Shown here piece by piece: positions 34,842 through 64,000 of a DNA stretch of 64,000 nucleotides. Each line of letters starts with the position of its first letter. Within the stretch, counting starts at the first letter, position 1. Source of the DNA: Rhynchosporium graminicola. Its lineage: Eukaryota; Ascomycota; Leotiomycetes; Helotiales; Ploettnerulaceae. Both the position numbers and the translations under genes were made by a program. Below the pieces are notes generated by a model. The model saw only the letters and a list, made by a program, of their open reading frames with translations. It was not told the origin of the DNA and searched no databases. The DNA is taken from the NCBI GenBank assembly GCA_900074885.1, contig FJUW01000042.1:62001-126000 (forward strand). The letters are read 5' to 3'.

Positions 34842-35109
34842 TGTGACGACAGCTCACCTGAATATCACATGAGAAGAAGGATAGATAATAGGGCCTAAGT
34901 TCATAAGTATCCCGGCAGAACTAGTATCTGACCTGATATAGTATCGGACTAATACTAGTATATATATATAAGGTACTTTATACTCTATCTCTCTTCTTTT
35001 TCCTTTCTTATCTTTTTATTTCTTTCGTAGTAGACTATATAAGATCGCTCTTAGCTTCCTTACTTATTTATTCTTACTTATATACTACCTTAAGTCTTAT
35101 ATTATTATA
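34842..35109 (+). repeat. 5' LTR, Gypsy family A copy 1 (268 bp)
   Basis: Starts TGTGACGACAGCTCACCTG and ends ..TCTTATATTATTATA, followed by the leader TTAAATAAAAAGATTAAG. The same 268-bp unit recurs at 37694, 46622, 51552, 53303 and 56424. Confidence 0.95.
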
Positions 35110-35127
35110 TTAAATAAAAAGATTAAG

Positions 35128-37688: not shown

Positions 37689-37693
37689 CTGCC

Positions 37694-37961
37694 TATAACG
37701 ATATAAGACTCAAGGCGGTATATAAGTAAGAATAAACGAGTAGGGAGGCTAAGAGCGATCTTATATAGTCTACTACGAAAGAAACAAAAAGATAAGGAAG
37801 GAAGAAGAAGAGAGATAGAGTATAAGGCACCTTATATATATATGCTAGTACTAGCCCGATACTATACCGAGTCAGATACTAGTTCTGCCGGGATACCTAT
37901 GAACTTAAGCCCTAGTATCTATCCTTCTTCTCATATAATATTCAGGTAAGCTATCATTATA
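37694..37961 (-). repeat. 3' LTR, Gypsy family A copy 2 (268 bp)
   Basis: Reads TATAACGATATAAGACTCAAGG on the plus strand, ends CTATCATTATA, then TTA and a C-run (the polypurine-tract complement). Confidence 0.94.
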
Positions 37962-38399
37962 TTACCCCCCCCCTAAGAAGAGCTTAACCCTAAGCTCAGA
38001 AAGTTATAGTTTATACTAGAATTAGTCTTTATTATAACTATTTTCGTCGATATTCGCGTAATAAGCGCTAGCCGCTCTTTAGTAGTAGTAAATTCTTTAT
38101 CAGGTTCTAACTAGTTACGTCGCTATAATAGTATTATATTAGTTATAGCTTCCAAATCGGGCGGTAAGTAGTATTTACTTTATCTATTTATAGTAGGAGT
38201 CGAGTTTAAGTAGAGCATAAGGTATATAAAGGAAAGGGTTTATTAATATTAGAGCCTTTCCTTTTCAACCGCGATAACTACTTTAACTTATAAGTTTACT
38301 CTCCTTAGACTACGATACGGCTCCTATAGTAAGTATCGTTACTAACTACTATAGTAGTCTACTATAATCTTATATATCAATCGACCTAATTAACTCTTC

Positions 38400-39417
38400 T
38401 CTTAATATAAGTAAGTTTCCTATCTTAGTTTTAGGGATAGTCCTTAAGTGTAGTACAGGAGTTTCACAGATCTATAACGCTAACTCCTATAGTACTTTTA
38501 CTAGTTCCTACTAGTGCTCTTTCAGCGGCGTATTATATATATTACTTACGATATATTCGCGCTTTCCTTAAGATAAAGTATAATAATACTCCTATTTTAG
38601 AACTCTTATACTTATTTAATAAGCTTAACTCTAAGCTTTATAAGTATTATTCGGTATTAAAAAGTAGTTATAAGCATATAAGTTACTTAAATATAAATAT
38701 AGTTATATATACTAACGCGTTATAGTTACCTAATTATATTAATATAAAGTATACTATTTTATCCGGTTTACTTCCTAGTAGCGAAACTAAGGACGCGAAG
38801 CTAAATCAGGGTAATATTATAGCTACTTATAAGGCTATTAATCAGATCTATCGTCTCGCGAAATCTACTACTCCTACTACTACGTTAGAGATTACTACTA
38901 TATAATTAGCGGAGACTTAAGCTTTAAGGCGTTCTATAGAGAAAGTATTTAAGGAGTTAGAGTTTATTAAAGCAATAAGTTATAATCTTAAACCCTTAGA
39001 TACTAGTATAATACTAATACGATATAAGATTTAGATCTTCTAATAATCGATTCGGCGAAGTCTAGGTTAATAGCTAAAATAGTATTAAAGAAGATAAAGG
39101 AATTAAATAGTATTATATAGGAATTTATAAAGAAAGCTATATTTAAAGCTACGATATCTAATACTAAGGGAAAGAGGAATTTGCCTTCTAGTTTAGAGAA
39201 AGCGTTAGATCTAGATACTCCCGGACCCTCTCTAAAGAAGAAAGCTTATAGGATTAGCTATTACACTTAGTCTACTACTAGAGCTACGTTAGTAAGTTTA
39301 AGTAAGGAGTTAGATATAGTAGTTCCGGTTCTAGATATTTTAGATTTACTAGAAGCTCCGGAGAACTTAGGAGAGAAAGCTAATAAAGTAGAAGTAGTTA
39401 AAGAAGTAGAGTTTTAG
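38400..39417 (+). pseudogene. Antisense reading frame, Gypsy family A copy 2
   Basis: Plus-strand frame opposite to pol of this minus-strand element. From about 38465 it reads through AAYYIYYLRYIRAFLKIKYN, LLYLFNKLNSKLYKYYSVLK, LPNYINIKYTILSGLLPSSE, NIIATYKAINQIYRLAKS and ALRRSIEKVFKELEFIKA. Near 39030 it changes frame (an intron or indel) and goes on through KIVLKKIKELNSII, KKAIFKATISNTKGKRNLP and LDILDLLEAPENLGEKANK to a TAG at 39415-39417. The few stops are TAA/TAG where Gln or Trp would be expected before RIP. Helical, Lys/Leu-rich, with no recognised domain. I recall extra genes being described in Botrytis Gypsy elements, but I cannot check identity here. Confidence 0.6.
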
Positions 39418-42400: not shown

Positions 42401-43199
42401 TCGTCCGTAGATTACTAATATAAGAGCGAATATACGTTAAGTAATAGTTCTTCTAGAATAATTTTATAATCGTATAAGCGATATAGCGGAAGAATATTAG
42501 AATCCCGCTTAGAAAAGGCTTCCTTAAGGGTATAGTACTATTCCGGTAGCTTTTTAGCTATAAGTCGTTCGGTATCGGGATCCTCAGGAGAGTTACTATT
42601 TAGATAGTCTTATAAGAGGCAGTCTATCTTATAGATACTAGTAAAGAATAATTCGGAACCTTTATATTTTATATTAAAGTAAAAAGCTATAGTACTAATT
42701 TAGTAAATCGGAACTAGTTTCTAGATCCTCGGAGGTTAAGAGGAGCACTTATAGTAGAGTTTTAGCGCAAGTACCTTTCTCGATAAATTCGGAGCGGAAA
42801 GGAGTTCAGATTCCTTAGTAATAAGCGGAAATAAGTTAAAAGGTAAGGATAATACGTTAATATACTATATTACTACTATTTAGTATAATCGGCGTTAGTT
42901 TAGCTAGTTTATAGCTAAGTCCCGCGCGTTAATATTAATTTAGTAAGATTAATTAATACTAGGTTTATAAGGCGGTAGAGTTATAATTATCTCCTTATTA
43001 TATCAGAAAGTAGCTAGATAGCGTTCCGACTATAATAGCTTATAGTAGAGCGTATCTAGCTTAACCTGAAATCGTTATATCTATTTAATACTAATAATTA
43101 TATCTTACTATCCTAAATCGAGGAGAATAAAAGGGCAGTTATAAATACGCTTACTATTAATAGAAAAGTATAAACATATAAAATAGGTAATATAGGTTT

Positions 43200-46038
43200 T
43201 AATAGACTATTAGAAACTACGTATTAGAATAGAATAAGGTAATAGCTCGATTTTAATACTAAGAGCCCCTAATAGTTATCCGGTAAGAATACGATTAATA
43301 AATAGATAACTATTCGCTCCGGTATCGATCAGGCTATTTATAGAGACTCCTAGCCTATTTATACTAACTATAATCAGGTATATAAATTACTTACTTCTTA
43401 TTAAGGAGTTAAGGTCCAGATTAGAGAGATTATACTTACGTAGACTTAAGAAGGAGTTTTTACTTAGGCCTTATTATTTCCCTCTAGTATTAATCTAGAT
43501 TCAGAGGGTATATCTTCTACTACTTCCTTAATTACTTAATCCTCTTCCGGAAATTCGTTAATTAATTAAACCTTAAGTAAGTTAGGGTAATCTAGCTTAA
43601 TATAACTAAGCTATCTATAACTATAATACCTAAGGGGTTCTCCGGTCGAGGTAATAGGGCGTTTTAGCGCAGAGGAAGTACTAGCTTATACTAGGGTAGA
43701 AATACGTATATATAGTACAGGAGTAGTTTATTAAGGAGCTAAGCTTAAGAACCGGTAAGAGATAGAACTAGTAGTAATCGCAATAGTAATAGTAAGCTTA
43801 TAGTACTATACCTAGGTAGTAGCTTTCTCGGGATAAGTATATTCTAAGTTATAGCGATACTTAATATTAAAAGAAAGTAAAGATCTAACTATAGAAACGT
43901 AATCCTTATTCTATATTAGTTTAATAATAAGAGTTAAAGCGCGTAAGGATAATATAATCTTATCTTATATATAGAAAAACTACTCTTTCTTTTTAACCTT
44001 ACCTTAGATAATAACGCTTTAAAATCAACTATAAAACTCGGCGAAAGTCTCGTATATATAGCTAGGTTATTATATTTCTAAGTAGTAGAAAGCGTTATAG
44101 TAATTATCTTCCTCTAAACTAGTAAGAAAGTTCTCTTCTAATAAGGAGATTATTTTATCGCTAGTTTTAAACTCGTTAGCGAAGTACTAAAGCGTAAGAT
44201 ACTCCTTAGCTAATCTAGTAACTAGCTCCTATACGAGAATACGCTAGGAGAAGTCCGTAGGGTAATAGTTAGCGTTTATAGCTAGCCGATCTCGTATCGA
44301 TACTCTCTATTAGAGGAAAGTAGAGTCTAATCTATTATCTAAGAGCAGGATCTTCTTAGTAAGATAAGACTTCTTAGGGCGTAACTCTACCGATTCGGCG
44401 CTAAGAGAGGGAGATAGTTTATTAGGAATAGTATCCTCTCTCTCGGTACTATATATTAGAATAGAGTTTATTAAGTTATTAAACTCCGCTATACGCAGAG
44501 ATTATAGTATTAGTTCTAGTAGGAGAGTTAAAGATAAGTAAGGAACTCCTATAAGGAACTTATCTTATATAGAGATTAGTCTATCTATAGTATCTTCTAG
44601 AGAGTTATTCTTTTCCTTNTAATAGACTATTAGAAACTACGTATTAGAATAGAATAAGGTAATAGCTCGATTTTAATACTAAGAGCCCCTAATAGTTATC
44701 CGGTAAGAATACGATTAATAAATAGATAACTATTCGCTCCGGTATCGATCAGGCTATTTATAGAGACTCCTAGCCTATTTATACTAACTATAATCAGGTA
44801 TATAAATTACTTACTTCTTATTAAGGAGTTAAGGTCCAGATTAGAGAGATTATACTTACGTAGACTTAAGAAGGAGTTTTTACTTAGGCCTTATTATTTC
44901 CCTCTAGTATTAATCTAGATTCAGAGGGTATATCTTCTACTACTTCCTTAATTACTTAATCCTCTTCCGGAAATTCGTTAATTAATTAAACCTTAAGTAA
45001 GTTAGGGTAATCTAGCTTAATATAACTAAGCTATCTATAACTATAATACCTAAGGGGTTCTCCGGTCGAGGTAATAGGGCGTTTTAGCGCAGAGGAAGTA
45101 CTAGCTTATACTAGGGTAGAAATACGTATATATAGTACAGGAGTAGTTTATTAAGGAGCTAAGCTTAAGAACCGGTAAGAGATAGAACTAGTAGTAATCG
45201 CAATAGTAATAGTAAGCTTATAGTACTATACCTAGGTAGTAGCTTTCTCGGGATAAGTATATTCTAAGTTATAGCGATACTTAATATTAAAAGAAAGTAA
45301 AGATCTAACTATAGAAACGTAATCCTTATTCTATATTAGTTTAATAATAAGAGTTAAAGCGCGTAAGGATAATATAATCTTATCTTATATATAGAAAAAC
45401 TACTCTTTCTTTTTAACCTTACCTTAGATAATAACGCTTTAAAATCAACTATAAAACTCGGCGAAAGTCTCGTATATATAGCTAGGTTATTATATTTCTA
45501 AGTAGTAGAAAGCGTTATAGTAATTATCTTCCTCTAAACTAGTAAGAAAGTTCTCTTCTAATAAGGAGATTATTTTATCGCTAGTTTTAAACTCGTTAGC
45601 GAAGTACTAAAGCGTAAGATACTCCTTAGCTAATCTAGTAACTAGCTCCTATACGAGAATACGCTAGGAGAAGTCCGTAGGGTAATAGTTAGCGTTTATA
45701 GCTAGCCGATCTCGTATCGATACTCTCTATTAGAGGAAAGTAGAGTCTAATCTATTATCTAAGAGCAGGATCTTCTTAGTAAGATAAGACTTCTTAGGGC
45801 GTAACTCTACCGATTCGGCGCTAAGAGAGGGAGATAGTTTATTAGGAATAGTATCCTCTCTCTCGGTACTATATATTAGAATAGAGTTTATTAAGTTATT
45901 AAACTCCGCTATACGCAGAGATTATAGTATTAGTTCTAGTAGGAGAGTTAAAGATAAGTAAGGAACTCCTATAAGGAACTTATCTTATATAGAGATTAGT
46001 CTATCTATAGTATCTTCTAGAGAGTTATTCTTTTCCTT
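43200..46038. repeat. Identical 1,419-bp tandem copies separated by one N (assembly artefact)
   Basis: 43200-44618 and 44620-46038 read identically wherever I compared them, including RIP mutations, with a single N at 44619 between them. The second copy is continued by sequence that makes sense for the element (46039 onward), the first is not. Deleting one copy brings the element to the length of its sister. Confidence 0.93.
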
Positions 46039-46621
46039 CTAGTCTACTAATTATTATAAGAGAGAACGGATCAGGTTCGAGTCACTTATAGTAATAAGAG
46101 TACTTAGCGATTATACTCCTAGTGAATTTCGCTTTTATTTTCCTTTCCCTCTTAGTCGGTACTTCCTTAATAAGGTATTAATATTCTCTAAGGCAAGAGA
46201 TATTTAAGATAAGGAAAAATATAACAGATTAGGTTCAGAGGTAGAGTAGGAAGGATCGTATCAGGTTCCCCTAGAACTAGAGAGGTCTCTAGTTTATTAG
46301 TTAAGAGCTATAATAGTAGCTTAAAAAAAGGTATATTAGAGCTATTTCAGCGGTAATACGTAGAGATTAAAGTTCCAGGGTATTTATTACACTTTCTTTA
46401 AAATCTATTTATAATTCCTTTATACTAAGGGAGTTATTAAAAGAGTATTAGCGAAAACCTCCTCTATTATACTATTTACGATAAGCTAAATTAAACCCTA
46501 ATTTATAATTATCAAAGAGATCTCTAGTATCTAAGCTATATAAAAGTAGTTATCGAATAACTAACTTAGTAGTAAGATATTATAATAAGCTATCTCTAGC
46601 TATCTTAATCTTTTTATTTAA

Positions 46622-46889
46622 TATAATAATATAAGACTTAAAGTAATATATAAGTAAGAATAAATAAGTAGGGAAGCTAAGAGCGATCTTATATAGTCTA
46701 CTATAAAGGAAATAAAAAGATAAGGAAAGAAGAAGAAGAGAGATAGAGTATAAAGTACCTTATATATATATACTAGTACTAGCCCGATACTATACTAAGT
46801 CGGATACTAGTTCTGCCGGGATACCTATGAACTTGGGCCCTAGTATCTATCCTTCTTCTCATATGATATTCAGGTGAGCTGTCGTTATA
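46622..46889 (-). repeat. 5' LTR, Gypsy family A copy 2 (268 bp)
   Basis: Starts TATAATAATATAAGACTTAAAG and ends almost unmutated GGTGAGCTGTCGTTATA, then the target duplicate CTGCC. Confidence 0.94.
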
Positions 46890-46894
46890 CTGCC

Positions 46895-49800
46895 TCTTAT
46901 AAGACTATCTAAATAGCGATTCTCCTAAGGATCCTGATACTAAATAACTTATAGCCGAAAAGCTACTAGAATAATACTATACTCTTAAGGAAGCTTTTTC
47001 TAAGCGGGATTCTAATATTCTTCTACTATATCGCTTATACGAATATAAAATTATTCTAGAAGAACTATTACTTAATATATATTCGCTCTTATATTAGTAA
47101 TCTATAGACGAATTATAAGTAACTAAAGAGTACCTTATAGAGAACCTAGATAAGGGATTTATCGAATCTAGCTAAAGTCCCTTTATATTACTTATACTAT
47201 TTATTAAGAAGGCAAATAGAGGATTAAACTTCTATATAAACTATAATAAGCTTAATACGATAACTCGAAAGGATTCCTACCTAATACCTAGGATCGATAA
47301 GCTCTTAACTCGTATATCTAAAGTAATAATCTTTATTAAACTAGATATCCGGGTAGTAATTAATTATATTTATATAGACTCCGAATCCGAGGAATATATT
47401 ATTTTCCGAACCTGCTTCGGATCTTATAAATATAAAGTACTACCTTTTAAGCTCTATAATAGACTTAGTACGTACTAGCGATATATAAATAATATACTAT
47501 TAGATTACTTAGATAATTTCTATATAGCTTACTTAGATAATATTCTTATATACTCGGAAACGCTCTAGGATTATAAGGAATATATTAAATTAGTACTATA
47601 ATACTTAATAGATACTAGACTTCAGGTAGATATTAAGAAAAGCGAATTCTATATTACTCGGACTAAATACCTTAGATATATTATTACTATTAATAGAATT
47701 AAGCTAGATCCCGAGAAGGTAATATTATTAGTAAACTAGAAGTACCCCGAAACGGTAATAGCTATAAAATCCTTCTTAGGATTCTATAGGTTCTATTATT
47801 AATTTATTCGGAATTTCGGCCTTATCGCTAAACCTCTCTTAGTACTTACTCGGCCTATAGTACTATAGAATTTCACTAATAATTATAAGAAGTCCTTTAA
47901 CGATTTATATTAATAGCTATTATTAGTATAGAAACTATATTATTTCGACCCTGAATTATAAACTAAACTAGAAACTAATACTTCTGATAATATAATAGCT
48001 AGAGTTATCTCCTAATTATATGAAGATAACTAATAGTATCTAATTAGATTCTACTCTTATATTCTTAATAGATATAAACTAAACTAGAAGATCTATAATA
48101 AAGAGCTATACGCTATTATTAAGTCTTTCCGGAAATAGAGACCGGAACTTATATCTCTATAACGCTATATTAGCGTATATACGGACTATTAATCCTTAGA
48201 ATACTTTATAACTACTAAAGTCCTAACTAGTAAGTAAGCTAGATAGATAGAATTCCTTTCCGAATTTAACTTTCAAATTATATATACGCTTAGTAAAGAT
48301 AACGCTAAAGCTAATATCCTTAGCTATAAGGAATAAGATCTAAGGATATAAGAATAATAGAAATAAGATAGTAGATCTCGGGTTTTATTACCTCTAGACT
48401 ATCTAGACCTTAGGATTAACGCGGAACTAGCTAAGTATTATATCGATTAAATTAGTTATATATACCTAATATCGCTAGGGACTAATACGCTATTAGAACT
48501 TGTATATAACTCCTTTGATTTAATTAAGAAACTATACTAATTTAACTAAGAATCGTTCTTTAAGGAACGAAATATATTAGGAGATAGCTATACTATTAAT
48601 AATAGTTTATTACTTTATAATAGTTATCTATACGTATAACGCTATACCTCGCTATATACTTATTTAATTAGCGAAATCTATAATTAAGTTTCCTCTACTT
48701 ATCTAAACGCTTATAAGACCGCCGAAATGATTTCTACTTATTACTACTAGAAAGGACTTATATTAGATATAAAATAGTATACTTATAATTACCGCTTCTA
48801 CTAGTACTCTTATCCGAAACAGACGAAATAGTAAGGATTCCTCTACTTATTACTAGTACTTAGCTACCTTATATAGTACTTAGCTATAGATTTTAAGGAC
48901 TTCCCGCCTAATAATTAAGGATTTAATAAGATATTAGTATTTATCGACTGCCTAGGGAAAGACTCTATATTAATACTATACTATCGTAATATTAATACTC
49001 GTAAGATAGTAATATTATTTATCTAATAGATATATCGTTTCAGATATACTCCTAAGTTAATTATATCCGACTAAGAAGCTTAGCTAATCTTATCCTTCTA
49101 ATAAGAGTTTTATTATATAATTAGAGTTAAAGTTAAGCTCTTTACTTCTTTCTACTAGTAAACCGATAGATAAATAAAGATTATAAACTAGTATATTAAT
49201 TAACGCTTTAGACCTTTTATTAATTACTACTAGAGTAACTAAAGCGAACTACTACTAATAATAGATCGCGCTTAAGTAACTTTACCTTACGATTCTATTA
49301 GTATAGCGCTATATACTCTTAAATATAGTATATTACTACAGAATAGCTAAGATTAGAAGTAACCTATAGTATTAATACTATAAGAGAAGCTTAATTATAC
49401 TAATACTAAATCCTTCGCTAAATATACTAAATCCGCTATCGAGGTTATAAAAGCTAATATATTAGCTACTTAGTAGAAGATAAGCGCTATAACTAACCCG
49501 AAATAGTATAGTATCGACTAGGAAGTTAAAGATAAGGTATTTCTCTTTATAAAGAACTTTAAGAATCACTAGCTAAGTAAGAAGCTATCTAGCCTCTAGG
49601 TAGGACTATACTAAGTCCTAGCTAAGATCAGATACTCCTATAAGCTAGATTTGCCTCTAGGATCCTTTATATATAATATATTCGCTCTCGAATTACTCTT
49701 TAAGGACCCGGACGACCTATTACTAAGCTAGGAGTTACTAAACCTACTCCCGGAGGTTATTACTACTTAAGAAGAGTAAGAGTTATAAGATATACTCGCT

Positions 49801-50040
49801 ATATAGCTCCTAAGAGATAATCTGAAGTATTAGATTAGTTAGCTAAGCTATAACTCGGACTTAACTTAGTATAATACTTCCGATCTAATAAGTACTTTAT
49901 ATAAGCTTAGAGACTTCTACGCTATTAACTTAAGTAAACTTAGATCTCTACGTAAACTAGATTAATAGATTAAGGCCTAAGAAGATAGGATAGATAACTA
50001 TAGTTACTTAGAAGATAATAAGCTATTATAGTTATTAGTA
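46895..50040 (+). pseudogene. Gypsy family A copy 1: RT, RNase H, integrase and chromodomain remnant
   Basis: Reverse transcriptase spans about 46950-47720; its active-site box reads YLDN near 47530 (YxDD damaged) within AYLDNILIYSETL. RNase H is about 47930-48340 (ASDNIIARVISQLYEDN-like). Integrase is about 48550-49500, with a core near FIDCLGKDSI (about 48935) and TPKLIISD (about 49050). A C-terminal chromodomain-type segment lies at about 49780-50030 (LRDFYAINLSKLRSLRKLD, DNYSYLEDNKLL). The arrangement is that of chromoviral Gypsy elements of filamentous fungi. Dense TAA/TAG stops show it is dead. Confidence 0.9.
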
Positions 50041-50095
50041 TTAAGATTTATTACTAAAGATAATTCCCTGATTATACTTTATAATAACGCTATAT

Positions 50096-51080
50096 CTAAA
50101 ACTCTACTTCCTTTACTACTTTTACTTCCCTAGCTTTCTCCTCTAAGTTCTCCGGAACTTCTAGTAAGTCTAGAATATCTAGAACCGGAACTACTATATC
50201 TAACTCCTTACCTAAATCTACTAATATAGCCTTAGTAGTAGACTAAGTATAATAGCTAATCCTATAAAGTTTCTTCTTTAGAGAAAGTCCGAGAGTATCC
50301 AGATCTAATACTATTTCTAAACTAGAAAGTAAATTCCTCTTTCCCTTAGTATTAGATATCGTAGCTTTAAATATAGCCTTTTTCGTAAATTCTTATATAA
50401 TACTATTTAATTCTTTTATTTACTTTAATACTATTTATACTATTAACTTAGACTTCGCTGAATCTACTATTAAAAGATCTAGATCTTATATTACGTTAGT
50501 ATTATACTAGTATCTAAGGATTTAAGATCTTAACTTATTACCTTAATAAACTCTAACTCTTTAAATACTTTCTCTATAGAACGCCTTAAAGCTTAAGTCT
50601 CTGCTAATTATATAATAATAATCTCTAATATAGTAATAAGAGTAATAGATTTCGCAAGATAATAGATCTGATTAATCGCCTTATAAGTAGCTATAATACT
50701 ACTCCGATTTAGCTCTATATCCTTAGTTTCGCCGCTAGGAAGTAAACCGGATAAAATAATATACTCTATATTAATATAATTAGGTAATTATAACACGTTA
50801 GTATATATAACTACGTTTAGGTTTAAGTAACTTATATACTTATAACTACTCTTTAACGCTAAATAATACTTATAAAGCTTAGAGTTAAGCTTATTAAATA
50901 AGTATAAGAGTTCTAAAGTAGGAGTATTATTATACTTTATCTTAAGGAAAGCGCGAATATACTATAGGTAATATATACGATACGCTACTGAAAGAGTACT
51001 AGTAGGAACAGGTAAAAGTACTATATAAGTTAGCGTTATAAATCTATGAAACTCTTATATTACACTTAAGGACTATCTTT
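50096..51080 (-). pseudogene. Antisense reading frame, Gypsy family A copy 1
   Basis: This is the minus-strand counterpart of the better readable frame at 38400-39417 in copy 2. It lies after pol and before the 3' LTR, and reads towards pol. See that entry for content. Start and internal frame change are approximate. Confidence 0.5.
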
Positions 51081-51524
51081 AAAACTAAGATAAGAAACTT
51101 ACTTATATTAAGAGAAGAGTTAATTAGGTTAATTAATATATAAGATTATAGTAGACTACTTTAGTAGTTAGTAACAATACCTACTCTAAGAGCTATATTA
51201 TAATCTAGGGAGAATAAACTTATAAGTTAAAGTAGTTATCGCGGTTAAAAAGGAAAAGCTCTAATATTAATAAACCCCTTCCTTTATATACCTTACGCTC
51301 TACTTAAACTCGACTCCTACTATAAAAAGATAAAGAAAATAAAACTTACCGCCCGATTTAGAAGCTATAACTAATATAATACTATTATAGTAATATAACT
51401 AGTTAGAATCTAATAAAGAATTTACTATTACTAAAGAGTAGCTAGCGCTTATTACGCGAATATCAACGAAAATAGTTATAATAAAGACTAATTCTAATAT
51501 AAACTATAACCTTCCGAGCTTAGG

Positions 51525-51551
51525 GTTAAGCTCTTCTTAGGGGGGGGGTAA
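51525..51551 (+). other. Polypurine tract before the 3' LTR, Gypsy family A copy 1
   Basis: CTTAG followed by a long G-run and TAA abuts the 3' LTR at 51552. The mirror-image C-run lies next to the left LTR of copy 2 (about 37965-37972). This is the expected plus-strand primer of an LTR retrotransposon and fixes element polarity. Confidence 0.8.
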
Positions 51552-51819
51552 TATAATAATAGCTTATCTGAATATTATATAAGAAGAAGGATAGATAATA
51601 GGGCCTAAGTTCATAGGTATCCCGGCAGAACTAGTATCTGACCTAGTATAGTATCGGACTAGTACCGGCATATATATATAAGGTGCTTTATACTCTATCT
51701 CTCTTCTTCTTCTTTCCTTATCTTTTTATTTCCTTTATAGTAGACTATATAAGATCGCTCTTAGCCTCTCTACTCGTTTATTCTTGCTTGTATACTACCT
51801 TGAGTCTTGTGTCGTTACA
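51552..51819 (+). repeat. 3' LTR, Gypsy family A copy 1 (268 bp)
   Basis: The first half is RIP-mutated (TATAATAATAGCTTATCTG). The last 50 bases are nearly intact (TTGAGTCTTGTGTCGTTACA). The target duplicate GTATG follows. Confidence 0.95.
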
Positions 51820-52565
51820 GTATGCCTAGATACCTTAGAGATCGCCGATATAATACTAAAGGATAGCTTAGTATTAGAATTAATAACTAGCTTCTAAGGA
51901 GATTTAATAGCTATAGTATTACTAACTTTAGAAGTATAATTAGCCCGCTTCTTCTCTATATTAAAGAATACCTAAGTAATCTTTAATACTTCTACAAAAC
52001 TCTCACCTATTACTACTTTTAAAGCTATATCTTATAGTTAGCTAAGAATACTTATCAGGATAGCTAGAACCTCGCTAGCTATTAGCTAAGTATTCGCTAG
52101 AGAGAGGAAATTTATACTTATATCCTCGTAAGATTTACTCTTCTTAATATAATCTATATATTTACTAGTAATAGAGTTAGAAGCTAAAGTATACTTTAAC
52201 TTAGGGAATAAAGTATACTCGCTAGCGTATCGTAAGTAAGTCTCCGGACGCAGTATCTTCTTATTTATCTTAGTATAAGCCTTCGACTTTATCTGCGTAT
52301 TCTTTCGACTAGTATAAAGGGTCTTATCGTAATAAGCAGAAAGGCTATTATCTTAGCTCAGCTCGCTTTTAATATCCTTATTATTATCTTCAGCTCGCTA
52401 GCGCTTAGTCGATAACCCGCTAGCGACTACGGTTTTTCCCTTATTAATAGGAGTAAAAGTATTACTAGAAAGAAGAGTATCTTTAAGCGAACTACTAGCG
52501 GCGCGCTTACGAAGGTTCTTCTTAGGAGCTAAAAGGTTAAGTTAGTACTACTTAATACCTTATAT
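51820..52565 (-). pseudogene. Antisense reading frame in the 3' region of Gypsy family B (N-terminal part)
   Basis: On the minus strand, opposite to pol, a frame reads from about 52565 (LNLLAPKKNLRKRAA) through SNTFTPINKGKTVVASGLST, EYTLFPKLKYTLASNSITSK and KLSFSIISAISKVSRH. It is interrupted only by TAA/TAG codons at positions where Gln is expected after RIP. It continues in the same frame across the family A insertion into 34836-34400. Basic and Ser/Thr-rich at first, helical later. I do not recognise the protein. No comparable opening exists on the sense strand. Confidence 0.6.
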
Positions 52566-52817
52566 TTATAACTTACGTATAGTTACTATTATTATTATTA
52601 GTTATTTAAGAAGAGAGAGAAGAGAAAAAGTTAAGAGTTATATAGAGGAGTTACCTAGTACTATACCCTATATTCTAGCCTTACTAATAATAAAGAAGAA
52701 TCAGAATAAAAGTAAATCCTGAAAGGAATACCTCGCCGGCGCCTCGCTGAAGTATCGCTAGCTAGAGCATTTTAACGCCTTTACTTCTAAGATAGAAGTA
52801 TTTAAGAGAGGAGATAT

Positions 52818-52999
52818 TATAATAGGTCTATACGCCTAGTGCCTCCTACTCCTATATTTCAGAATTAGAGAGGAAGGAAGAACCTTCTCTCCTTAGTAAT
52901 TAGTTTCTATATTAACTAGATTATTACTAGCGAACCTCCAGCGACTGTTCTACTATTATATTATGCCTATTTACCTCAGCGTACTAAGTGATCATTACA
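52818..52999 (+). repeat. 3' LTR of Gypsy family B (182 bp)
   Basis: Same length as the left copy. Its 5' end is RIP-mutated (TATAATAGGTCTATACGCC) and its 3' end is nearly intact (AGTGATCATTACA). The target duplication AGTTT follows at 53000-53004. Confidence 0.93.
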
Positions 53000-54048: not shown

Positions 54049-55235
54049 AGTCTTTAGGTAAAGTATAAGGGTTTTATAGATCTATAATACTAACTCCTAT
54101 AGTACTTTTACTAGTTCCTACTAGTACTCTTTCAGCGGCGTATTATATATATTACCTGCGATATATTCGCGCTTTCCTTAAGATAAAGTATAATAATACT
54201 CTTATTCTAGAACTTCTATATTTATTTAATAAGCTTAATTCTAAGCTTTATAAGTATTATTTAGCGTTAAAAAGTAATTATAAGTATATAAGTTACTTAA
54301 ACCTAAATATAATTATATAAGCTAACGTATTATAGTTATTTAATTATATTAATATAAAGTATACTATTTTATCCGGTTTACTTCCTAGCGGCGAAGCTAA
54401 GGATATAGAGCTAAATCGGGGCAGTATTATAGCTACTTATAAAGCGATTAATCAGATCTATTATCTCGCGAAATCTGCTACTCTTATTATTACGTTAGAG
54501 ATTATTACTATATAATTAGTAGAAACTTAAGCTTTAAGGCGATCTATAGAGAAAGTATTTAAAGAGTTAGTGTAACGACATAAGACTCAAGGCGGTATAT
54601 AAGCAAGAATAAACAAGTAGGGAGACTAAGAGCGATCTTATATAGTCTGGTACGAAGGAAACAGAAAGATGCAGAGCTCTAAAAGAGTCTGCACCTTCTA
54701 TATATACAAGGAGGGTATGCCTAAGGCACCGATACTGGCCCGTATCTGCCACGTATACTATGCGCCGTCATAGTTAGAGTATATTAAAGTAATAAGTTAA
54801 GATCTTTAAATCTTTAGATACTAATATAATACTAATATAATATAAGATTTAGATCTTCTAATAATAGATTCGGCGAAGTTTAAGTTAATAGTATAAACTA
54901 TATTAAAGCAGATAAAGGAGTTAAATACTATTATATAGGAATTTGCAAAGAAAGCTATATTTAAGATTATAATATCTAATACTAAGGGAAAGAGGAATTT
55001 ACCTTCTAGTTCAGAGATAGTATTAGATCTAGATACTCTTAGACTCTCTCTAAAGAAGAAAGCGCGTAAGATTAGCTATTATACTTAGTTTATTACTAAG
55101 GCTATATTAGTAGATTTAAGTAAAGAGTTAGATATAATAGTTCTAGTTCTAGATATTTCAGATTTACTAGAAGCTCCGGAGAACTTAGGAGATAAAGCTA
55201 ATAAAGTAGAGGTAATAGAGGAAATAGAGTTTTAG
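54049..55235 (+). pseudogene. Antisense reading frame, Gypsy family A copy 3 (split by a solo LTR)
   Basis: Homologous to the 38400-39417 frame of copy 2, including ALRRSIEKVFKEL-like and LLEAPENLG-like segments, ending at a TAG at 55233-55235. The 202-bp solo LTR with GTTAG duplicates interrupts it at 54570. Limits are by alignment to copy 2. Confidence 0.5.
54571..54772 (-). mobile_element. Solo LTR of the gag-only element family (202 bp)
   Basis: TGTAACGACATAAGACTCAAGG to TATGCGCCGTCATA, flanked by GTTAG (54566-54570, 54773-54777). The pre-insertion site is preserved in copy 2 (GGAGTTAGAGTTTATTAAAG, about 38954). It is the least RIP-mutated stretch of the stack, so it is recent or too short to be efficiently targeted. 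A 61-codon minus-strand frame inside it is accidental. Confidence 0.93.
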
Positions 55236-56423
55236 ATATAGTATTATTATAGAGTATAATCAGAGGATTATCCTTAGTAATAAATTTTAATACTAATAAC
55301 TATAATAGTTTATTATCCTCTAAGTGATTATAGTTATCTATTCCGTTTTCCTAAGCCTTAATCTACTAATCTAGTTTATATAGAGGTCTAGGTTTACTTA
55401 GGTTAGTAGTATAGAAGTCTTTAAGCTTATATAGAGTACTTATTAAGTCAGAAGCGTTATACTAAGTTAGATCCGAGTTATAGCCTAGCTAGCTAACTTA
55501 ATACTTCAGATTACCTCTTAGGAGCTATATAGCGAGTATATCTTATAACTCTTACTCTTCTTAAGTAGCGATAACCTCTAGGGGTAAGTTTAGTAGCTTC
55601 TAGCTTAGTAAAGGGTCGTCCGAGTTCTTAAAGAGTAATTCGAGAGCGAATATATTATATATAGAAGATCTAGAGAGTAAATCTAGCTTATAGGAGTATC
55701 TGATCTTAGCTAGGACCTAGTATAGTCCTATCTAGAGGCTAGATAGCTTCTTACTTAGCTAGTAATTCTTAAGGTTCCTTATAGAGAGAAATACCTTATC
55801 TCTAACTTCTTAGTTAATATTATACTATTTCGGGTCAGTTATAGCGCTTATCCTCTACTAAGTAGCTAGTATATTAGCTTTTATAACCTCGATAGCAGAT
55901 TTAGTACATTTAGCTAAAGATTTAGTATTAGTATAATTAAGCTTCTCTTATAGTATTAATATAATAAGTTACTTCTAATCCTAGCTATTCCGTAGTAGTA
56001 TACTATATTTAAGGGTATATAGCGTTATACTAATAGAATCGTAAGATAGGATTACTTAAGCGTAATCTATTATTAGTAGTAGTTCGCTCTAGTTACTCTA
56101 GTAGTAATTAACGAAAGGTCTAAAGTATTAATTAATATACTAGTTTATAATCTCTATTTATCTATTAGTTTATTAGTAAAAGAAAATAAAGAGCTTAACT
56201 TTAACTCTAATTATATAGTAAAACTCTTACTAGAAGGATAAGATAAACTAAGCTCCTTAGTAAGATATAATTAACTTAAGGGTATATCCGAAATAATATA
56301 TCTATTAGATAAATAATATTATTATCCCGCGGGTATTAATATTATAATAGCATAATATTAATATAGAGTCCTTCCCTAGGCGGTTAATAAATACTAATAT
56401 CCTATTAAACCCTTAGTTATTAG

Positions 56424-56691
56424 TATAACGATAGCTCATCTGAATATCATATGAGAAGAAGGATAGATACTAGGGCCTAAGTTCGCAGGTATCCCGGCAG
56501 AACTAGTATCCGACTCGATATAGTATTAGACTAGTACCGGTATATATATATAAGGTGCCTTATACTCTATCTCTCTTATTCTTCCTTACTTATCTTTTTA
56601 TTTCCTTTATATTAGACTATATAAGATCGCTCTTAGCTTCTCTACTTATTTATTCTTACTTATATATTACCTTAAGTCTTATTTTATTATA
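56424..56691 (+). repeat. 5' LTR, Gypsy family A copy 4 (268 bp)
   Basis: TATAACGATAGCTCATCTG to TCTTATTTTATTATA; same length and order as the other family A LTRs. The left part keeps AATATCATATGAGAAG. Confidence 0.93.
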
Positions 56692-59600
56692 TTAAATAAA
56701 AAGATTAAGATAGCCGGAGATAGCTTACTATAATATCTTACTACTAAGTTAGTTATTCGATAACTACTTATATATAGCTGAGATACTAGAGATCTCTCGG
56801 ATAGCTATAAATTAGAGTTTAATTTAGCTTATAATAAATAATATAATAGAGAAGGTCTTTACTAACGCTCCTTTAATAACTCCCTTAGTATAAAGGAATT
56901 ATAAATAGATTTTAAAGAAAGTATTAATAAATACTCTAGAACTTTAACCTCTATGTATCGCTACTGAAATAGCCCTAATATACCTCCTTTTAAGCTACTA
57001 TTATAGCTTCTAACTAATAAACTAGAGACTCCTCTAGTTCTAGGGGACCTTAACGCGATCCCTCTCGCTTTACTTCTAAACCTAATCTATTATACTTTTC
57101 TTTATCTTAAATATCTCTTATACTAGAGAATATTAATATCTTATTAAGGAAGTACTAACTAAGAGAGAAAGAAAAATAAAAGCGAAATTTACTAGAAGTA
57201 TAATCGCTAAGTACTTTTACTATTATAAGTAACTCGAACCTAATCTATCCTCTTTTATAATAATTAGTAGACTAAAAGAAAAAGAATAACTCTCTAGAAG
57301 ATACTATAAATAGACTAACCTCTATATAAAATAAGTTCCTTTTAGGGGTCCCTTACTTATCTTCGACTCTTCTACTAGAACTAATATTATAATCTCCTCG
57401 TATTCTAGAGTTTAATAAGCTAATAAACTCTATTTTAATACGTAGTACTAAAAGAGAGAATACTATTTCTAATAAACTATCTCTCTCTTCTAGCGCCGAA
57501 TCGGAAGAGTTACGCTCTAGGAAGTCTTATCTTACTAAGAAGATCTTACCCCTAGATAATAAATCAGACTCTACTTTCCTCTAATAGAGAGTATTAATAT
57601 AAGACTAGCGAGCTATAAATACCGACTACTACCTTATAGACTTCTCTTAGCGCGTTCTCGTATAGAGACTAATTACTAGATTAACTAAAGAGTATCTTAC
57701 GCTTTAGTACTTAGCTAATAAGTTTAAGACTAGTAATAAAATAATCTCCTCATTAGAGGAGAACTTTCTTATTAATTTAGAAGAAGATAACTATTATAAC
57801 GCTTTCTATTACTTAGAGATATAATAACTTAGCTATACCTACGAGACCTTTATTAAGTTTCGTAGTCGATTTTAAAGTACTATTATCTAAAGTAAAGTTA
57901 AAAAGAAAGAGTAGTTCTTCTATATATAGGATAAGATTATATTATTCTTACGTACTTTAACTCTTATTATTAAACTAATATAGAATAAGGATTACGCTTC
58001 TATAATTAGATCCTTACTTTCTTTTAATACTAAGTATTACTATAACTCAGAGTATATCTATCCCGAGAAAGCTACTACCCTAGTATAGTACTATAAGCTT
58101 ACTATTACCGCTACGACTACTACTAGCTCTACTCCTTACCGGTCCCTAAGCTTAGCTCCTTAATAAACTACTCTCGTACTATATATACGTACCTCTACCC
58201 CGGTATTAGCTAGTACTCCCTTCGCGCTAAAACGCCCTGCTACCTCGACCGGAGAACTCCTTAGATATTATAGCTATATATATTAAGCTAGACTGCCTTA
58301 ACCTGCCTAAGGTTTAATTAATTAACGAATTTCCGAAAGAGAAAAGAATAACTAAAGAAGTAATAGAGGATATACCCTCCGAATCTAGACTAATACTAGA
58401 GGGAAATAATAAGGCTTAAATAAAAACTCTTTCCTAGGTCTATATAAGTATAATCTCTCTAATCTTAACTTTAACTCTTTAATAAGAGGTAAGTAATTTA
58501 TATACCTGATTATAGTTAGTATAAATAAGCTAAGAGTCTCTATAGATAGCTTAATCGATACCGGAGCGAATAATTATCTATTTATTAATCGTACTCTTAT
58601 TAGATAACTATTAGAGGCCCTTAGTATTAAAATCGAGCTATTACTCTATTCTATTCTAATATATAAGTTCTAATAGTCTATCAGAACTTATATTATCTAT
58701 TTTATACGTTTATACTTTTCTATTAATACTAAGCGTATTTATAACTACCTTTTTATTCTCCTTGATTTAGGATAATAAGATATAATTATTAGTATTAAAT
58801 AGATATAATAATTTCAGGTTAAGCTAGATATACTCTACTATAAGCTATTATAGCCGGAACGATATCTAGTTACTTTCTGATATAATAAGAAGATAATTAT
58901 AACTCTATCGCTTCGTAAACTTAGTATTAATCGATCTTATTAAATCGATACTAATACGCAGGACTTAGCTATAAACTAGTTAGACTAACGCTAATTATAT
59001 TAAATAGTAGTAATATAGTATATTAATATATTATCTCTATTATTTAACTTATTTCCGCTTATCGCTAAAGAATCCGAACCCTTTTCTACTTTAAATTTAT
59101 CGAGAAAAGTACTTATACTAAAACTCTATTATAAGTGCTTCTCTTAACCTCCGAGGATCTAGAAACTAGTTCTGATTTACTAAATTAGTATTATAGTTTT
59201 TTACTTTAATATAAAATATAAAAGCTCTAAATTATTCTTTACTAGTATCTATAAGATAGATCGCTTCTTATAAGATTATCTAAATAGTAACTCCCCTAAG
59301 GATTTTAATACTAAATAACTCGTAGCCGAAAAGCTACTAGAATAGTATTATACCCTTAAGGAGGCCTTTTCTAAGCGGGATTCTAACATTCTTCTACTAT
59401 ATTAATTATACGATTATAAAATTATTCTAGAAGAACTATTATCTAATATATATTCGCTCTTATATTAGTAATCTATAGACGAATTATAAGTAACTAAAGA
59501 GTACCTTATAAAGAACTTAGATAAAGGATTTATCGAATTTAGCTAAAGTCTTTTCGTATTACTTATATTATTTATTAAGAAGGCCGATAGAGGATTACGC

Positions 59601-59983
59601 TTCTATATCGACTATTATAAGCTTAATATAATTACTCGAAAGGATTCTTACTTAATACCTAGGATCGATAAGCTCTTAACTTATATATCTAAAGTAGTAA
59701 TCTTTACTAAACTAGATATCCGGGTAGTGTTTAATTATATCTATATAGACCTCGAATCAGAGGAGTATACTATCTTCTGAACCCGCTTCGGATCCTATAA
59801 ATATAAAGTACTACTTTTTAGGCTCTATAATAGACCTAGTATATACTAACGATATATAAATAATATACTACTAGACTACTTAGATGATTTCTATATAGCT
59901 TACTTAGATAATATCCTTATATACTCGGAAGCGCTCTAGGAATATAAGGAATATATTAAATTAGTATTATAACGCTTAATAAA

Positions 59984-60185
59984 TATAGCGATATAAGACT
60001 TAAGGCGGTATATAAGCAAGAATAAACAAGTAGGGAGGCTAAGAGCGATCTTATATAGTCTAGTACAAAGGAAACAGAAAGATATAGAGCTCTGAAGGAG
60101 TCTGCACTTTCTATATATATAAGGAGAGTATACCTAAGGCACCGATACTAGCCCGTATCTGCCACGTATACTATGCGCCGTTATA
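59984..60185 (-). repeat. 3' LTR of the gag-only element (202 bp)
   Basis: TATAGCGATATAAGACTTAAGG to TATGCGCCGTTATA; same length as 61987-62188 and as the solo copy 54571-54772. Confidence 0.93.
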
Positions 60186-60329
60186 TTACCCTCTTCTAAG
60201 ATAAAGGCTCGCCCTCGAGCCTTTAAGGTAATAAGAAACGAAAGAAAAGAGAGTTAAATCCAGTCGAATTCTAAATAAAATCTAAGTAATTATTAATCTA
60301 AAGCATAAGATATAAATCACTTCTTCTTT

Positions 60330-61965
60330 ATCTTTAATATTAGATAATCGCCCTTATAGTAACTTTACTTCTTATAGTAGTAATACTATACTTCCTCGAT
60401 AGGTATTAAGAGCTTAGAAGACGTACTAACTATCAGTAGAGCTAGAGTAGCTCGAGGTATTAAAAGTAATCGAGAGAGTTCTAAATCAAGTACTATAAGA
60501 GAAGAGACTATAGCTAAATAATCAGTCTTCTAAGAGTACTTAATTAAAGCGGCAGCTATACGTAGCTATATAGTAAGCTTTAGCTAGAGGTAAAAGTATT
60601 ACTCTAATTCAGCTATACCTCTAAGAATTACTAAGCTTTAGAACTTTATATAGAATTAGAAAAAAGATTCCTTTTTTATTAAAAGCTTATGAAATTCGGT
60701 CTAATACTACTCTGTTTCGAGTCCGGAAAAGTAGTAAGAAGCGAGTATTAAAATTATCTCTTTAGTAGAAGAGAAAAGCGTAATTTCCGAGAGATATTAT
60801 AATTCTAAGTAACCTCTTATAAAGCTAGAAGTAGAGCTCTAGACTAGCGCTTTATAAGTACGCGTAATTAGATATTAATCTAAATTAACTTCTAGTTAAT
60901 TCTAAATAGAAATATACTATTAGCTAAAAGATAAGTTAATCCTTATATTAAGATTATTAATACTTTTAGTTAGTTACGACTTACTAGAGGTCTATAAATT
61001 ATTAATTAAAGAGTATTTAAGAGTAAGTTCTATTAGTAATTATAATATTAAGTTTATTAAAAGTCTAAGGTTTACTAAAGGTCTAGAGTTTATCGATTAT
61101 ACTTAAGTATATAAAAACTTAGTAAATATCTATTCGATATAACTAATACTAATAGAAAGCTCCCGAGTAGTTAATTCTATCTATAATTAATAGTCTTTAA
61201 TCGATTAAAGTAATTCTATAGTAAGTACGGAATTAGAGGGACTATAAGAGTATTCTGATAAAGCTATAGGAGCTAGCTAAGCTTTCTTAAGAGGTATAGT
61301 ATTAGGTAAGCGAGGCTAAGCGAAAGTAATAGAATACTTAAAAGTTATAAAAGAAGCGAAAATCGAAATCGAATTCTAAAGAAGCTAAAAGATTAAGAAG
61401 AGTTAAATATCTTTATTAAGTAGATATAGAAAGTATTAAATTAAAAGCTCTAGTAGAAGAAGGTCGATTCTGCTAAAAGGGATAAATTATACTAGAGTAT
61501 AGGGATTATTAGTCGAATTCTAATAATTTCCGCTAGAGTAATAAGCTACTTTATCTTAGCTTAAAAGTAAGGTTTTTCGCTATTAAAGCTACTTTCGGAA
61601 AGTTGAAGTTAAGTAAGGAGATAATAAATATTAGGGCTTATAAGGAAGTTTCTACTTAAAATTCGTTTACTATTTTATTTCGTACGTACGAAAGAACGAG
61701 TTTCGAAGTATCTAAGAGTAATTTCGTAGTAATACTAATACTTCTAAAGCTAAATTATATTTAAATTCCTAGCTATCCGAGAGATCTCTAGAATCTTAGC
61801 TCTTTTGAAAACCTAACTATCGAATTCGTAATTAATAATACTAATTATTTCTATATAATTCCGAAAATCTAAAGTAAGTAGAGATAACTTAGCGAAAAGC
61901 TCCCTAGTAGTTATATATACGAATCGAGTTTTCTAGGTAAGATATTATTTAATACTATCCTTAGT
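60330..61965 (-). pseudogene. Gag remnant of the non-autonomous element, with CCHC zinc knuckle
   Basis: On the minus strand a frame near the 5' LTR reads FVYITTRELFAKLSLLTLDF-like sequence with only RIP-type stops. At the far end, 60385-60344, the spacing of a C-x2-C-x4-H-x4-C knuckle is intact, but each Cys and the His is now Tyr, followed by KGDYLILKIKKK. The knuckle identifies a retrotransposon Gag C-terminus. The early segment shares the LEISR block with Gypsy A gag. There is no pol downstream before the LTR. The middle of the frame is too mutated to read continuously. Confidence 0.7.
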
Positions 61966-61986
61966 AGTCTTAATCTTTCTATTTAA

Positions 61987-62188
61987 TATAACGATATAAG
62001 ACTTAAAGTAGTATATAAGTAAGAATAAATAAGTAGGAAAGCTAAGAGCGATCTTATATAATCTAGTACGAAAGAAATAGAAAGATATAGAGCTCTAAAG
62101 GAGTCTGTATCTTCTATATATATAAGGAGGGTATACCTAAGGTACAAATACTGGCCTGTATCTACTACGTATACCATGCGCCGTTATA
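61987..62188 (-). repeat. 5' LTR of the gag-only element (202 bp)
   Basis: TATAACGATATAAGACTTAAAG to CATGCGCCGTTATA. More strongly RIP-mutated in its middle than the solo copy. Confidence 0.93.
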
Positions 62189-64000
62189 ATAAATACTAGA
62201 CTCTAGGTGAATATTAAGAAAAGCGAGTTCTATATTACCTGGACTAAATACCTCGGATATATTATTATTACTAATAGAATCGAGCTAGATCCTGAGAAGA
62301 AAGTACTATTAGTAGACTAGAAGTACCTCGAAACGGTAATAGCTATGAAATCTTTCCTAGGATTCTATAGTTTCTACTATTAATTTATTCAGAATTTCGG
62401 CCTTATTACTAAGCCTCTCTTAATACTTACTAGGCTTATAGTACTATAGAATTTCACTAATAATTATAAGAAATCCTTTAATAATTTATATTAATAGCTA
62501 TTATTAGTATAGAAATTATATTATTTCGACCCTGAATTATAGACTAAACTAGAAACTAATACCTCTAATAGTATAATAGCTAGAGTTATCTCTTAATTAT
62601 ATAAAGATAACTAGTAATATCTAATTAGATTCTACTCTTATATTCTTAATAGATACGAACTAAACTAGAAGATCTATAATAAGGAATTATATACTATTAT
62701 TAAGTCTTTCCGGAAATAGAGACTAGAACTTATATCTCTATAACGCTATACTAGCGTATATATAGACTATCGATCCTTAGAATACTTTATAACTATTAAG
62801 GTCTTAACTAGTAAGTAAGCTAGATAGATAGAATTCCTTTCTGAATTTAACTTTTAAATTATATATACGCTTAGTAAAGATAACGCTAAAGCTAATATCC
62901 TTAGCTATAGAGAATAAGATCTAAGGATATAGGAATAATAGAAACAGGATAGTAGATCTCGGGTTTTATTACTTCTAGACCGCTTAGACCTTAGGATTAA
63001 CGCGGAACTAGCTGAATATTATATCGATTAAATTAGCTATATATACTTAATATCGCTAGGGACTAATATACTATCGGAACCTGTATATAACTCCTTTGAT
63101 TTAATTAAGAAACTATACTGATTTAACTGAAAATCGTTCTCTAATAAATAGAATATATTAGGAAATAGCTATACTATTAATAATAGTTTACTACTTTATA
63201 ATAGTTATCTATACGTATAACGCTATACCTTGCTATATACCTGTTTAATTAGCGAAGTCTACGATTAGGTTTCCTCTGCTTATTCTAATACTCGTAAGAC
63301 TACTAAAATGATTTCTACTTATTACTACTAGAAAGGACTCGTATTAGATATGAAATAGTATACTTATAATTACTACTTATACTAGTACTCTTATCCGAAA
63401 CAGATAAAATAGTAAAGATTCCTCTATCTACTATTAGTACCTAGCTACTTTATATAGTGGCTATAGATTTTAAGGACTTCCCGCCTAATAACTAAGGATT
63501 TGATAGGATATTAGTCTTTATCGACCGCCTAGGGAAAGACTCCGTATCGATACTATATTATTATAATATTAATACCCGCGGGATAGTAATATTATTTATC
63601 TAATAGATATATTATTTCGGATATACCCTTAAGTTAATTATATCTTACTAAGGAGCTTAGTTTATCTTATTCTTCTAGTAAGAGTTTTACTATATAATTA
63701 GAGTTAAGATTAAGCTCTCTACTTCTTTCTACTAGTAGACTAACGAATAAACGGAGATTATAAACTAGTATATTAACTAACGCTTTAGACCTTTTATTAA
63801 TTACTACTAGAGTTACTAAGGCGAACTACTACTAATAATAGACCGCGCTTAAGTAACTTTACCTTACGATTCTATTAGTATAGCGCTATATACTCTTAGA
63901 TATAGTATATTACTACGGAATAGCTAGGATTAGAAGGAACTTACTATATTAATACTATAAGAGAAGCTTAATTATACTAATACTAAATCCTTAGCTAAAT

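What the first reader, a model, noticed from the sequence alone, without database searches (positions are those of the whole stretch)
59984..62188. Gag-only LTR element that shares its R-U5 and leader with Gypsy family A
A complete 2.2-kb element with a CCHC knuckle but no pol must borrow enzymes. Its LTR shares about 105 bp at the U5 side and the adjoining leader with Gypsy A, but has a distinct U3, as if it had swapped promoters. The purine tracts of both end GGGTAA before the LTR. This resembles the plant TR-GAG class; such elements are little described in fungi.
Basis: partly seen in the sequence, partly recalled or inferred. Interest (0 to 1): 0.75.

Follow-up and report, generated by a model that had tools for sequence, protein, structure and literature searches.

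The report
Gag-only retrotransposon riding on Gypsy A
A short, heavily mutated jumping element in a Rhynchosporium-like plant fungus carries only a capsid gene, and its RNA front end is almost identical to that of a larger resident element that probably supplied the enzymes it needed to copy itself.

Summary
59984-62188 is a complete LTR element on the minus strand: 202-bp LTRs, 5-bp target duplication ATAAA, gag remains ending in a CCHC knuckle, no pol. It is a family: 28 of 81 scored matches cover at least 2,000 of 2,205 bases; 24 of 27 copies checked have exact 5-bp target duplications.

New here:
(1) It looks self-primed, as in Tf1. The first 12 nt of R complement the PBS exactly in less mutated copies. 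One base pair covaries: C:G in 57 of 60 element sites, T:A in 15 of 15 Gypsy A sites.
(2) The match to Gypsy A starts at that R start: purine/pyrimidine identity 14-15/30 upstream, 98/99 downstream.
(3) Its gag is a distant relative of Gypsy A's, 32-39% identical, so it is no recent Gypsy A deletion.
(4) In a non-random sample, 23 of 28 3' LTRs end interiors that lack gag's CCHC end; no Gypsy A interior adjoins any of 41 LTRs in the way expected of a pol-bearing relative.

Best reading: a non-autonomous Ty3/Gypsy parasite sharing Gypsy A's RNA 5' end, later silenced by RIP. Mobilisation in trans is inferred. New variant, not a new kind.

The parts
59984..62188 (-). complete gag-only LTR element, 2205 bp
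   Evidence: LTR pair, target duplication, 28 of 81 scored genome matches (window copy included) covering at least 2,000 bases
61987..62188 (-). 5' LTR (U3 62087-62188, R-U5 61987-62086)
   Evidence: 202 bp; TATA-like box 62114-62124; presumed R start 62086
62075..62086 (-). R start / presumed self-primer (ATCTTTCTATTT here, ATCTTTCTGTTT in less mutated copies)
   Evidence: in L033 the only LTR 12-mer with a 12/12 reverse complement in the leader; covariation
61973..61984 (-). primer-binding site (AAATAGAAAGAT here), 2 nt after the LTR
61937..61986 (-). leader stretch shared with Gypsy A (includes PBS)
   Evidence: blastn 83-93% to Gypsy A copies together with R-U5
61747..61801 (-). second leader patch shared with Gypsy A (55 nt, palindromic AGAGATCTCT)
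   Evidence: 84-85% to two Gypsy A copies, 73% over a longer stretch to a third; its stem alone is not better than shuffles
60317..61297 (-). gag remains (about 327 codons, RIP stops); end points transferred from copy L033
   Evidence: homologous to Gypsy A gag, score 185-244 against a shuffle maximum of 72 (copies L033, L031, L026)
60344..60385 (-). CCHC knuckle codons (C/H read Y after RIP)
60206..60221 (-). 3' hairpin GGCTCG-AGGG-CGAGCC before the purine tract
   Evidence: 9-10 bp stem in L026/L031, 0 of 1000 shuffles each; Gypsy A has a different stem with a GGG-containing loop at the same place
60186..60196 (-). polypurine tract GAAGAGGGTAA
59984..60185 (-). 3' LTR
   Evidence: 87.4% to the 5' LTR
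59979..59983 (.). target duplication ATAAA (left)
62189..62193 (.). target duplication ATAAA (right)
56421..64000 (+). Gypsy A copy into which the element inserted (runs past the window end)
   Evidence: self-alignment breaks at 59985/62187
54573..54772 (-). solo LTR of the same family, inside another Gypsy A copy
   Evidence: 92% to 59986-60185

Best explanation
A non-autonomous Ty3/Gypsy-type LTR family in a Rhynchosporium-like genome. Its RNA begins with nearly the same R-U5-PBS-leader as the pol-bearing Gypsy A, and it keeps its own U3 promoter and its own diverged gag. Shown: anatomy, copy number, target duplications, gag homology, R/PBS complementarity with a covarying pair, the sharp junction at the R start, absence of pol in the full copies compared, and heavy RIP. 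Inferred: (a) reverse transcription is primed by the RNA's own 5' end, as in Tf1; (b) Gypsy A's enzymes acted in trans, because both RNAs carry the same priming and leader signals, near-identical LTR 3' ends and the same purine-tract/hairpin layout; (c) the shared R-U5-leader was captured by template switching between co-packaged RNAs, the first strand-transfer joint lying at R; (d) internal deletions then gave elements without the CCHC end, or any, of gag that also spread; (e) RIP silenced them.
For: Family and ends. R/PBS complement and covariation: 57/60 C:G (3/60 C:A) against 15/15 T:A; the fold holds at least 8 R:PBS pairs in 50/60 and 9/15, and the duplex appears in all three segments. 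Junction: 14-15/30 upstream against 98/99 downstream in purine/pyrimidine space, 90-91/99 exact. Older Gypsy A relative A2: U3 differs from A by 8-10 transversions in 163, whereas R-U5 element:A differs by 1 in 100, like A2:A at 1 plus an indel in 101, although the element's U3 does not align convincingly to A's. Gag homology; transversions by codon position 0.27-0.33, 0.19-0.27, 0.43-0.48. Gypsy A has RT and RNase H above Pfam cut-offs. No Gypsy A interior attached at 41 LTRs in 32 loci. 27 near-full copies have only 12 purine/pyrimidine columns with a minor state in 2 or more copies in the regions counted, which fits a recent burst.
Against: No expression, particle or mobilisation data. Pfam did not find an integrase in the Gypsy A piece searched, only a sub-threshold Tf2-1-like SH3 match, so the helper's integrase is inferred. 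The R:PBS fold is not more stable overall than shuffles (z -0.99, 0.23, 1.19); the MFE lacks the duplex in 10/60 and 6/15. Constraint alone also keeps R-U5 similar between A and A2. Gag could be a passenger: forms without its CCHC end are commoner in the sample. No Pfam domain and no database homologue (E 0.01) was found for the element's gag.
Confidence: 0.7

Rival explanations
1. Plain deletion derivative: an autonomous Gypsy with the same U3 and gag lost pol by internal deletion, and that parent still exists or only recently died out.
For: Every gag-only element must descend from some gag-pol element, and further internal deletions with short overlaps at the joints are visible in the family. 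Only the best 40 candidates of 1431 were scored, and one search tested only Gypsy A sequences for an attached pol.
Against: No Gypsy A interior adjoined an element-type LTR in the expected place at 41 LTRs in 32 loci; 28 show the family's own 3' end and 12 its own leader, 1 shows neither. The pol-bearing family compared, Gypsy A, has a gag only 32-39% identical.
Confidence: 0.22
2. R-U5 and leader are similar only through shared descent and strong constraint on the RNA 5' end; nothing was swapped.
For: A and A2 also keep R-U5 (1 transversion and 1 indel in 101) while U3 drifts (8-10 in 163). Patches of U3 (TATATATA.AAGGTGC) may be distantly alike; the alignment score is -46, the mean of 300 shuffles -74.4 and their maximum -43.5.
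Against: Element and A are near saturation at gag third positions, and their U3 does not align convincingly, yet R-U5 differs by 1 transversion in 100. The element shares A's TTTATTCTT, whereas A2 has TTTTATCCCT.
Confidence: 0.25
3. Gag is a dead passenger and the family is simply a TRIM/LARD-like set of non-coding hitchhikers.
For: 23 of 28 sampled 3' LTRs belong to forms without gag's CCHC end. Within-family polymorphism is too low to show selection on gag after loss of pol.
Against: 28 of 81 scored matches keep at least 2,000 of 2,205 bases. An initiator ATG and a 16-codon (48-nt, frame-keeping) deletion are seen in L031. Codon-position bias since the split from Gypsy A gag, though part of that is the Gypsy A branch and the protein-guided alignment favours it.
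Confidence: 0.2
4. The likeness to Gypsy A is a RIP or base-composition artefact.
For: The region is strongly RIP-mutated, (CA+TG)/(AC+GT) 0.17 in the element.
Against: RIP leaves purine/pyrimidine class unchanged: 98/99 downstream, chance level upstream. Reversed-pattern controls give 0 against 1692 sites.
Confidence: 0.01

Closest known systems
TR-GAG elements of plants (PMC8704663, passages read; original description recalled as Chaparro et al. 2015)
   Same: LTR pair, single Gag reading frame, no pol, presumed enzymes in trans
   Different: Fungal; self-priming type PBS; shares R-U5-leader but not U3 with the partner; forms without gag's CCHC end outnumber it in the sample; RIP-mutated
Tf1/Tf2 and Tj1, self-primed Ty3/Gypsy elements (PMC7175516 and PMC4600332, passages read)
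   Same: First 11 (here 12) nt of the RNA complementary to the PBS next to the 5' LTR
   Different: No pol here; priming itself not demonstrated
crapaud of Podospora (PMC10787394, abstract and sections 8 and 12 read)
   Same: Fungal LTR family under RIP, with U3 diverged and R/U5 conserved between subfamilies; template switching proposed
   Different: crapaud subfamilies share a largely homologous interior; here a non-autonomous and a pol-bearing family with diverged gags share R-U5
Non-autonomous fungal LTR elements in general (PMC3248453 passages: related autonomous/non-autonomous pairs are common; PMC7175516 passage: Tca1 of Candida, 5.6 kb, no ORFs)
   Same: Fungal LTR elements lacking their own enzymes
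   Different: Those passages do not describe a gag-only, self-priming element with a named helper
Soybean autonomous/non-autonomous pair with LTR swapping (Du et al. 2010; seen only as a reference-list entry in PMC5668417)
   Same: By its title, partner elements exchanging LTRs
   Different: Plant; not read here
TRIM / LARD non-autonomous LTR elements (definitions recalled)
   Same: The gag-less derivatives: LTR, leader, purine tract, no coding capacity seen
   Different: About 1.3-1.74 kb in five complete examples, between the usual TRIM and LARD sizes

Membership tests
TR-GAG | two LTRs with target duplication | tested here: met
   24 of 27 copies exact 5 bp, plus the window copy
TR-GAG | one Gag reading frame with CCHC, no pol | tested here: met
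   the three copies translated are RIP-broken, so an intact frame was not seen
TR-GAG | Gag recognised by domain profile | tested here: not met
   0 Pfam families at E up to 10; Gypsy A's gag also gives 0, so the profile is insensitive here
TR-GAG | mobilised by enzymes in trans | not testable with these tools
   needs living, non-RIP copies
Tf1-type self-priming elements | RNA 5' end complementary to the PBS | tested here: met
   12/12 and unique in the LTR of L033, covarying pair
Tf1-type self-priming elements | RNA actually starts at that position | not tested
   no RNA data; a TATA-like box lies 38-28 nt upstream
Tf1-type self-priming elements | RNase H cleavage producing the primer | not testable with these tools
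   biochemical
Deletion derivative of Gypsy A itself | U3 and gag near-identical to Gypsy A | tested here: not met
   U3 does not align convincingly, gag 32-39%
Ty3/Gypsy superfamily | homology to the gag of a Gypsy-type element | tested here: met

The most novel reading that the evidence does not exclude
A capture module for self-primed retroelements: a gag-bearing parasite took over its helper's whole RNA 5' end (R-U5-PBS-leader) at the natural strand-transfer joint, because primer and PBS must match. It kept its own promoter and Gag, then spawned second-order parasites without a complete gag. The covarying R:PBS pair is the footprint.
Probability: 0.4. Interest if true: 0.68.

Novelty: new variant of a known kind. 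Interest (0 to 1): 0.5.

Why it matters
My searches found TR-GAG only in plant papers (12 of 12 listed) and their listings showed no fungal gag-only description (open-licence papers only, top rows only where many matched). If right, this is a fungal helper/parasite/second-order-parasite chain in one genome, and a natural test of which cis signals a self-primed retroelement must share with its helper: R, U5, PBS, leader patches, 3' hairpin and purine tract are shared in sequence or layout; U3 and gag differ.

Tried and rejected
Within-family codon test: 27 aligned copies have only 12 purine/pyrimidine columns with a minor state in 2 or more copies in the regions counted, so selection on gag after loss of pol cannot be tested. 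tRNA priming: not tested against tRNAs, but the PBS strings counted all begin AAA after TT, where RIP of TGG would be expected to leave TAG. Gypsy A U3/R pattern: I left out one T, so its 0 hits mean nothing. Third covariation from A2: 8 loci (9 LTRs) fetched, none followed by a PBS. First R:PBS counting script had a faulty pattern and returned 0, corrected. Database homologues of the element's gag: none at E 0.01 among 1807 candidates. The stem of the shared 55-nt leader patch is not better than shuffles (218 and 284 of 1000). The leader alignment printed was forced end to end and is not used. Dropped rows: 2 of 5 Gypsy A loci (L073, L074), whose CCHC my pattern did not recognise, 2 of 77 sites of unassigned family (both C:G), and 194 R-start sites were seen of which 77 had a recognised PBS and a distinct sequence, 3 of 27 copies had no exact target duplication (L010, L015, L027).

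Full report
What is there. The interval 59984-62188 is one LTR element read on the minus strand. Two 202-bp LTRs (TGTGACAG...GTTACA in less mutated copies) enclose a 1.8-kb interior; ATAAA is duplicated on both sides. It sits in a plus-strand Gypsy A copy that starts at 56421 and runs off the window, so it is younger than that copy. The window from about 24 kb on is strongly RIP-mutated. The host is a Rhynchosporium or close relative: a gene in the unmutated part is 98% identical to R. agropyri.

It is a family. In its own genome, 81 matches were scored and 28, the window copy included, cover at least 2,000 of 2,205 bases; the tool scored only 40 of 1431 candidates, so this is a lower bound. 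Of 27 other copies checked (25 of the 2.15-2.2-kb type and 2 deletion forms), 24 have exact 5-bp target duplications. 27 aligned near-full copies differ almost only by transitions: 12 purine/pyrimidine columns have a minor state in 2 or more copies in the regions counted, as expected of a recent burst followed by RIP.

Gag. Frames of L033, L031 and L026 show about 327 codons (311 in L031) starting at MPPKKAQLAP (L031) and ending in C-FY-C-KKHG-Y-YKGD-C, a CCHC knuckle whose histidine reads Y, as RIP would leave it. The protein aligns to Gypsy A's gag with scores of 185-244 over 9 pairs against a maximum of 72 in 200 shuffles per pair, and at 32-39% identity over 181-275 codons in 6 pairs. Transversions, which RIP does not make, are commonest at third and rarest at second codon positions in all 6 comparisons. 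A protein-guided alignment favours that pattern somewhat. Both lineages were therefore probably coding for much of the time since they split; this does not show selection after pol was lost. Pfam finds nothing in either gag. Gypsy A's pol gives RT and RNase H above cut-off and a weak, sub-threshold Tf2-1-like SH3 match, but no integrase core.

The RNA 5' end. LTR position 103 begins ATCTTTCTGTTT in less mutated copies; 2 nt after the LTR comes its exact complement AAACAGAAAGAT. In L033 no other 12-mer of the LTR reaches 12/12. Among 77 distinct LTR sites with a recognised PBS, 60 element sites are C:G (57) or C:A (3) at the diagnostic pair and 15 Gypsy A sites are all T:A; 2 unassigned are C:G. 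The C/T difference in R is not in a CpA context, so RIP is an unlikely cause. The predicted folds hold at least 8 R:PBS pairs in 50 of 60 and 9 of 15, but total stability is no better than shuffles. This is the arrangement described for Tf1 and Tj1 (PMC7175516 and PMC4600332, passages read).

The junction. Aligned without gaps at the R start and scored as purine/pyrimidine, element and Gypsy A agree at 14-15 of 30 positions upstream (chance) and 98 of 99 downstream; exact identity downstream is 90-91 of 99 (one element LTR against two Gypsy A LTRs). Similarity goes on through the PBS for about 48 nt and resumes in a 55-nt patch. At the 3' end both have a hairpin with a GGG-containing loop just before a purine tract ending GGGGGTAA in the copies printed. 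The stems differ in sequence (GGCTCG/CGAGCC against GAGCTTA/TAAGCTC), which suggests that the structure, not the letters, is kept; 0 of 1000 shuffles match in three of four cases, 22 of 1000 in the fourth.

Capture or constraint. An older Gypsy A relative, A2, gives a yardstick. A2 (one LTR) and A (two LTRs) differ by 8-10 transversions in 163 nt of U3 and 1 transversion plus an indel in 101 nt of R-U5. Element and A do not align convincingly in U3 and are near saturation at gag third positions, yet have 1 transversion (and 7-8 transitions) in 100 nt of R-U5. Constraint clearly acts, but alone it should have left more change. Capture by template switching is my favoured reading. It is inferred from few sites.

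Second-order derivatives. Of 28 3' LTRs in loci chosen by LTR or U3 likeness, 5 end an interior that runs unbroken into gag's CCHC end and 23 one that lacks it. In these loci 41 element-type LTRs were seen (32 loci): 28 are preceded by the family's own 3' end, 12 followed only by its own leader, 1 shows neither; no Gypsy A interior is attached where a pol-bearing relative would have it. Only Gypsy A sequence was tested, and many loci show only about 700 bp on either side. Five gag-less elements with both LTRs in view measure about 1.3-1.74 kb. Some short forms keep pieces of gag (L080, L087), so they derive from gag-bearing ones. The sample is not random: it holds the best U3/LTR matches to the window copy.

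Abundance. An R-U5 pattern occurs 1692 times (at most 1 mismatch, reversed control 0) and the element's own U3/R junction 472 times, a lower bound, since some of its LTRs read GAGCTCTG there. I have no valid count for Gypsy A's junction, because one search was mistyped.

Known and new. TR-GAG elements (12 papers listed, all on plants), Tf1-type self-priming, and U3-diverged/R-U5-conserved LTR families in a RIP fungus (crapaud, PMC10787394, abstract and sections 8 and 12 read) each cover part of this, and fungal non-autonomous LTR elements as such are known (PMC3248453 and PMC7175516, passages read). The combination, a gag-only self-priming fungal parasite sharing its helper's RNA 5' end with a covarying primer pair, was not seen in the listings of my searches, which cover open-licence papers only. 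I file it as a new variant of a known kind.

Noticed in passing
43197-44629 and 44617-46049: A 1.43-kb direct duplication inside a Gypsy A copy, 99.65% identical although other Gypsy A alignments in the window are 86-92%: recent duplication or assembly artefact.
   Followed up: no
34846-37690 / 37694-46889 / 46892-51820: One Gypsy A copy interrupted by a second, inverted Gypsy A copy (nested insertion).
   Followed up: partly
about 49700-51500: Gypsy A seems to carry more than 1 kb after a stretch that looks like a chromodomain by eye (Pfam did not report one) and before its purine tract; content not identified.
   Followed up: no
L108, L110-L117: A2, an older Gypsy A relative seen here only as LTRs; none of the 9 LTRs in L110-L117 is followed by a PBS.
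   Followed up: partly
23308-23518 / 29349-29559 and 22790-22970 / 52817-52997: Two short repeat pairs at 94% and 93%, unidentified.
   Followed up: no
L043, L044, L042, L037: The same internal deletion joint (interior 1316|1654, about 10-bp overlap), removing the C-terminal gag part and CCHC, in four loci; L043 and L044 have their own target duplications, so this deletion form itself transposed.
   Followed up: partly
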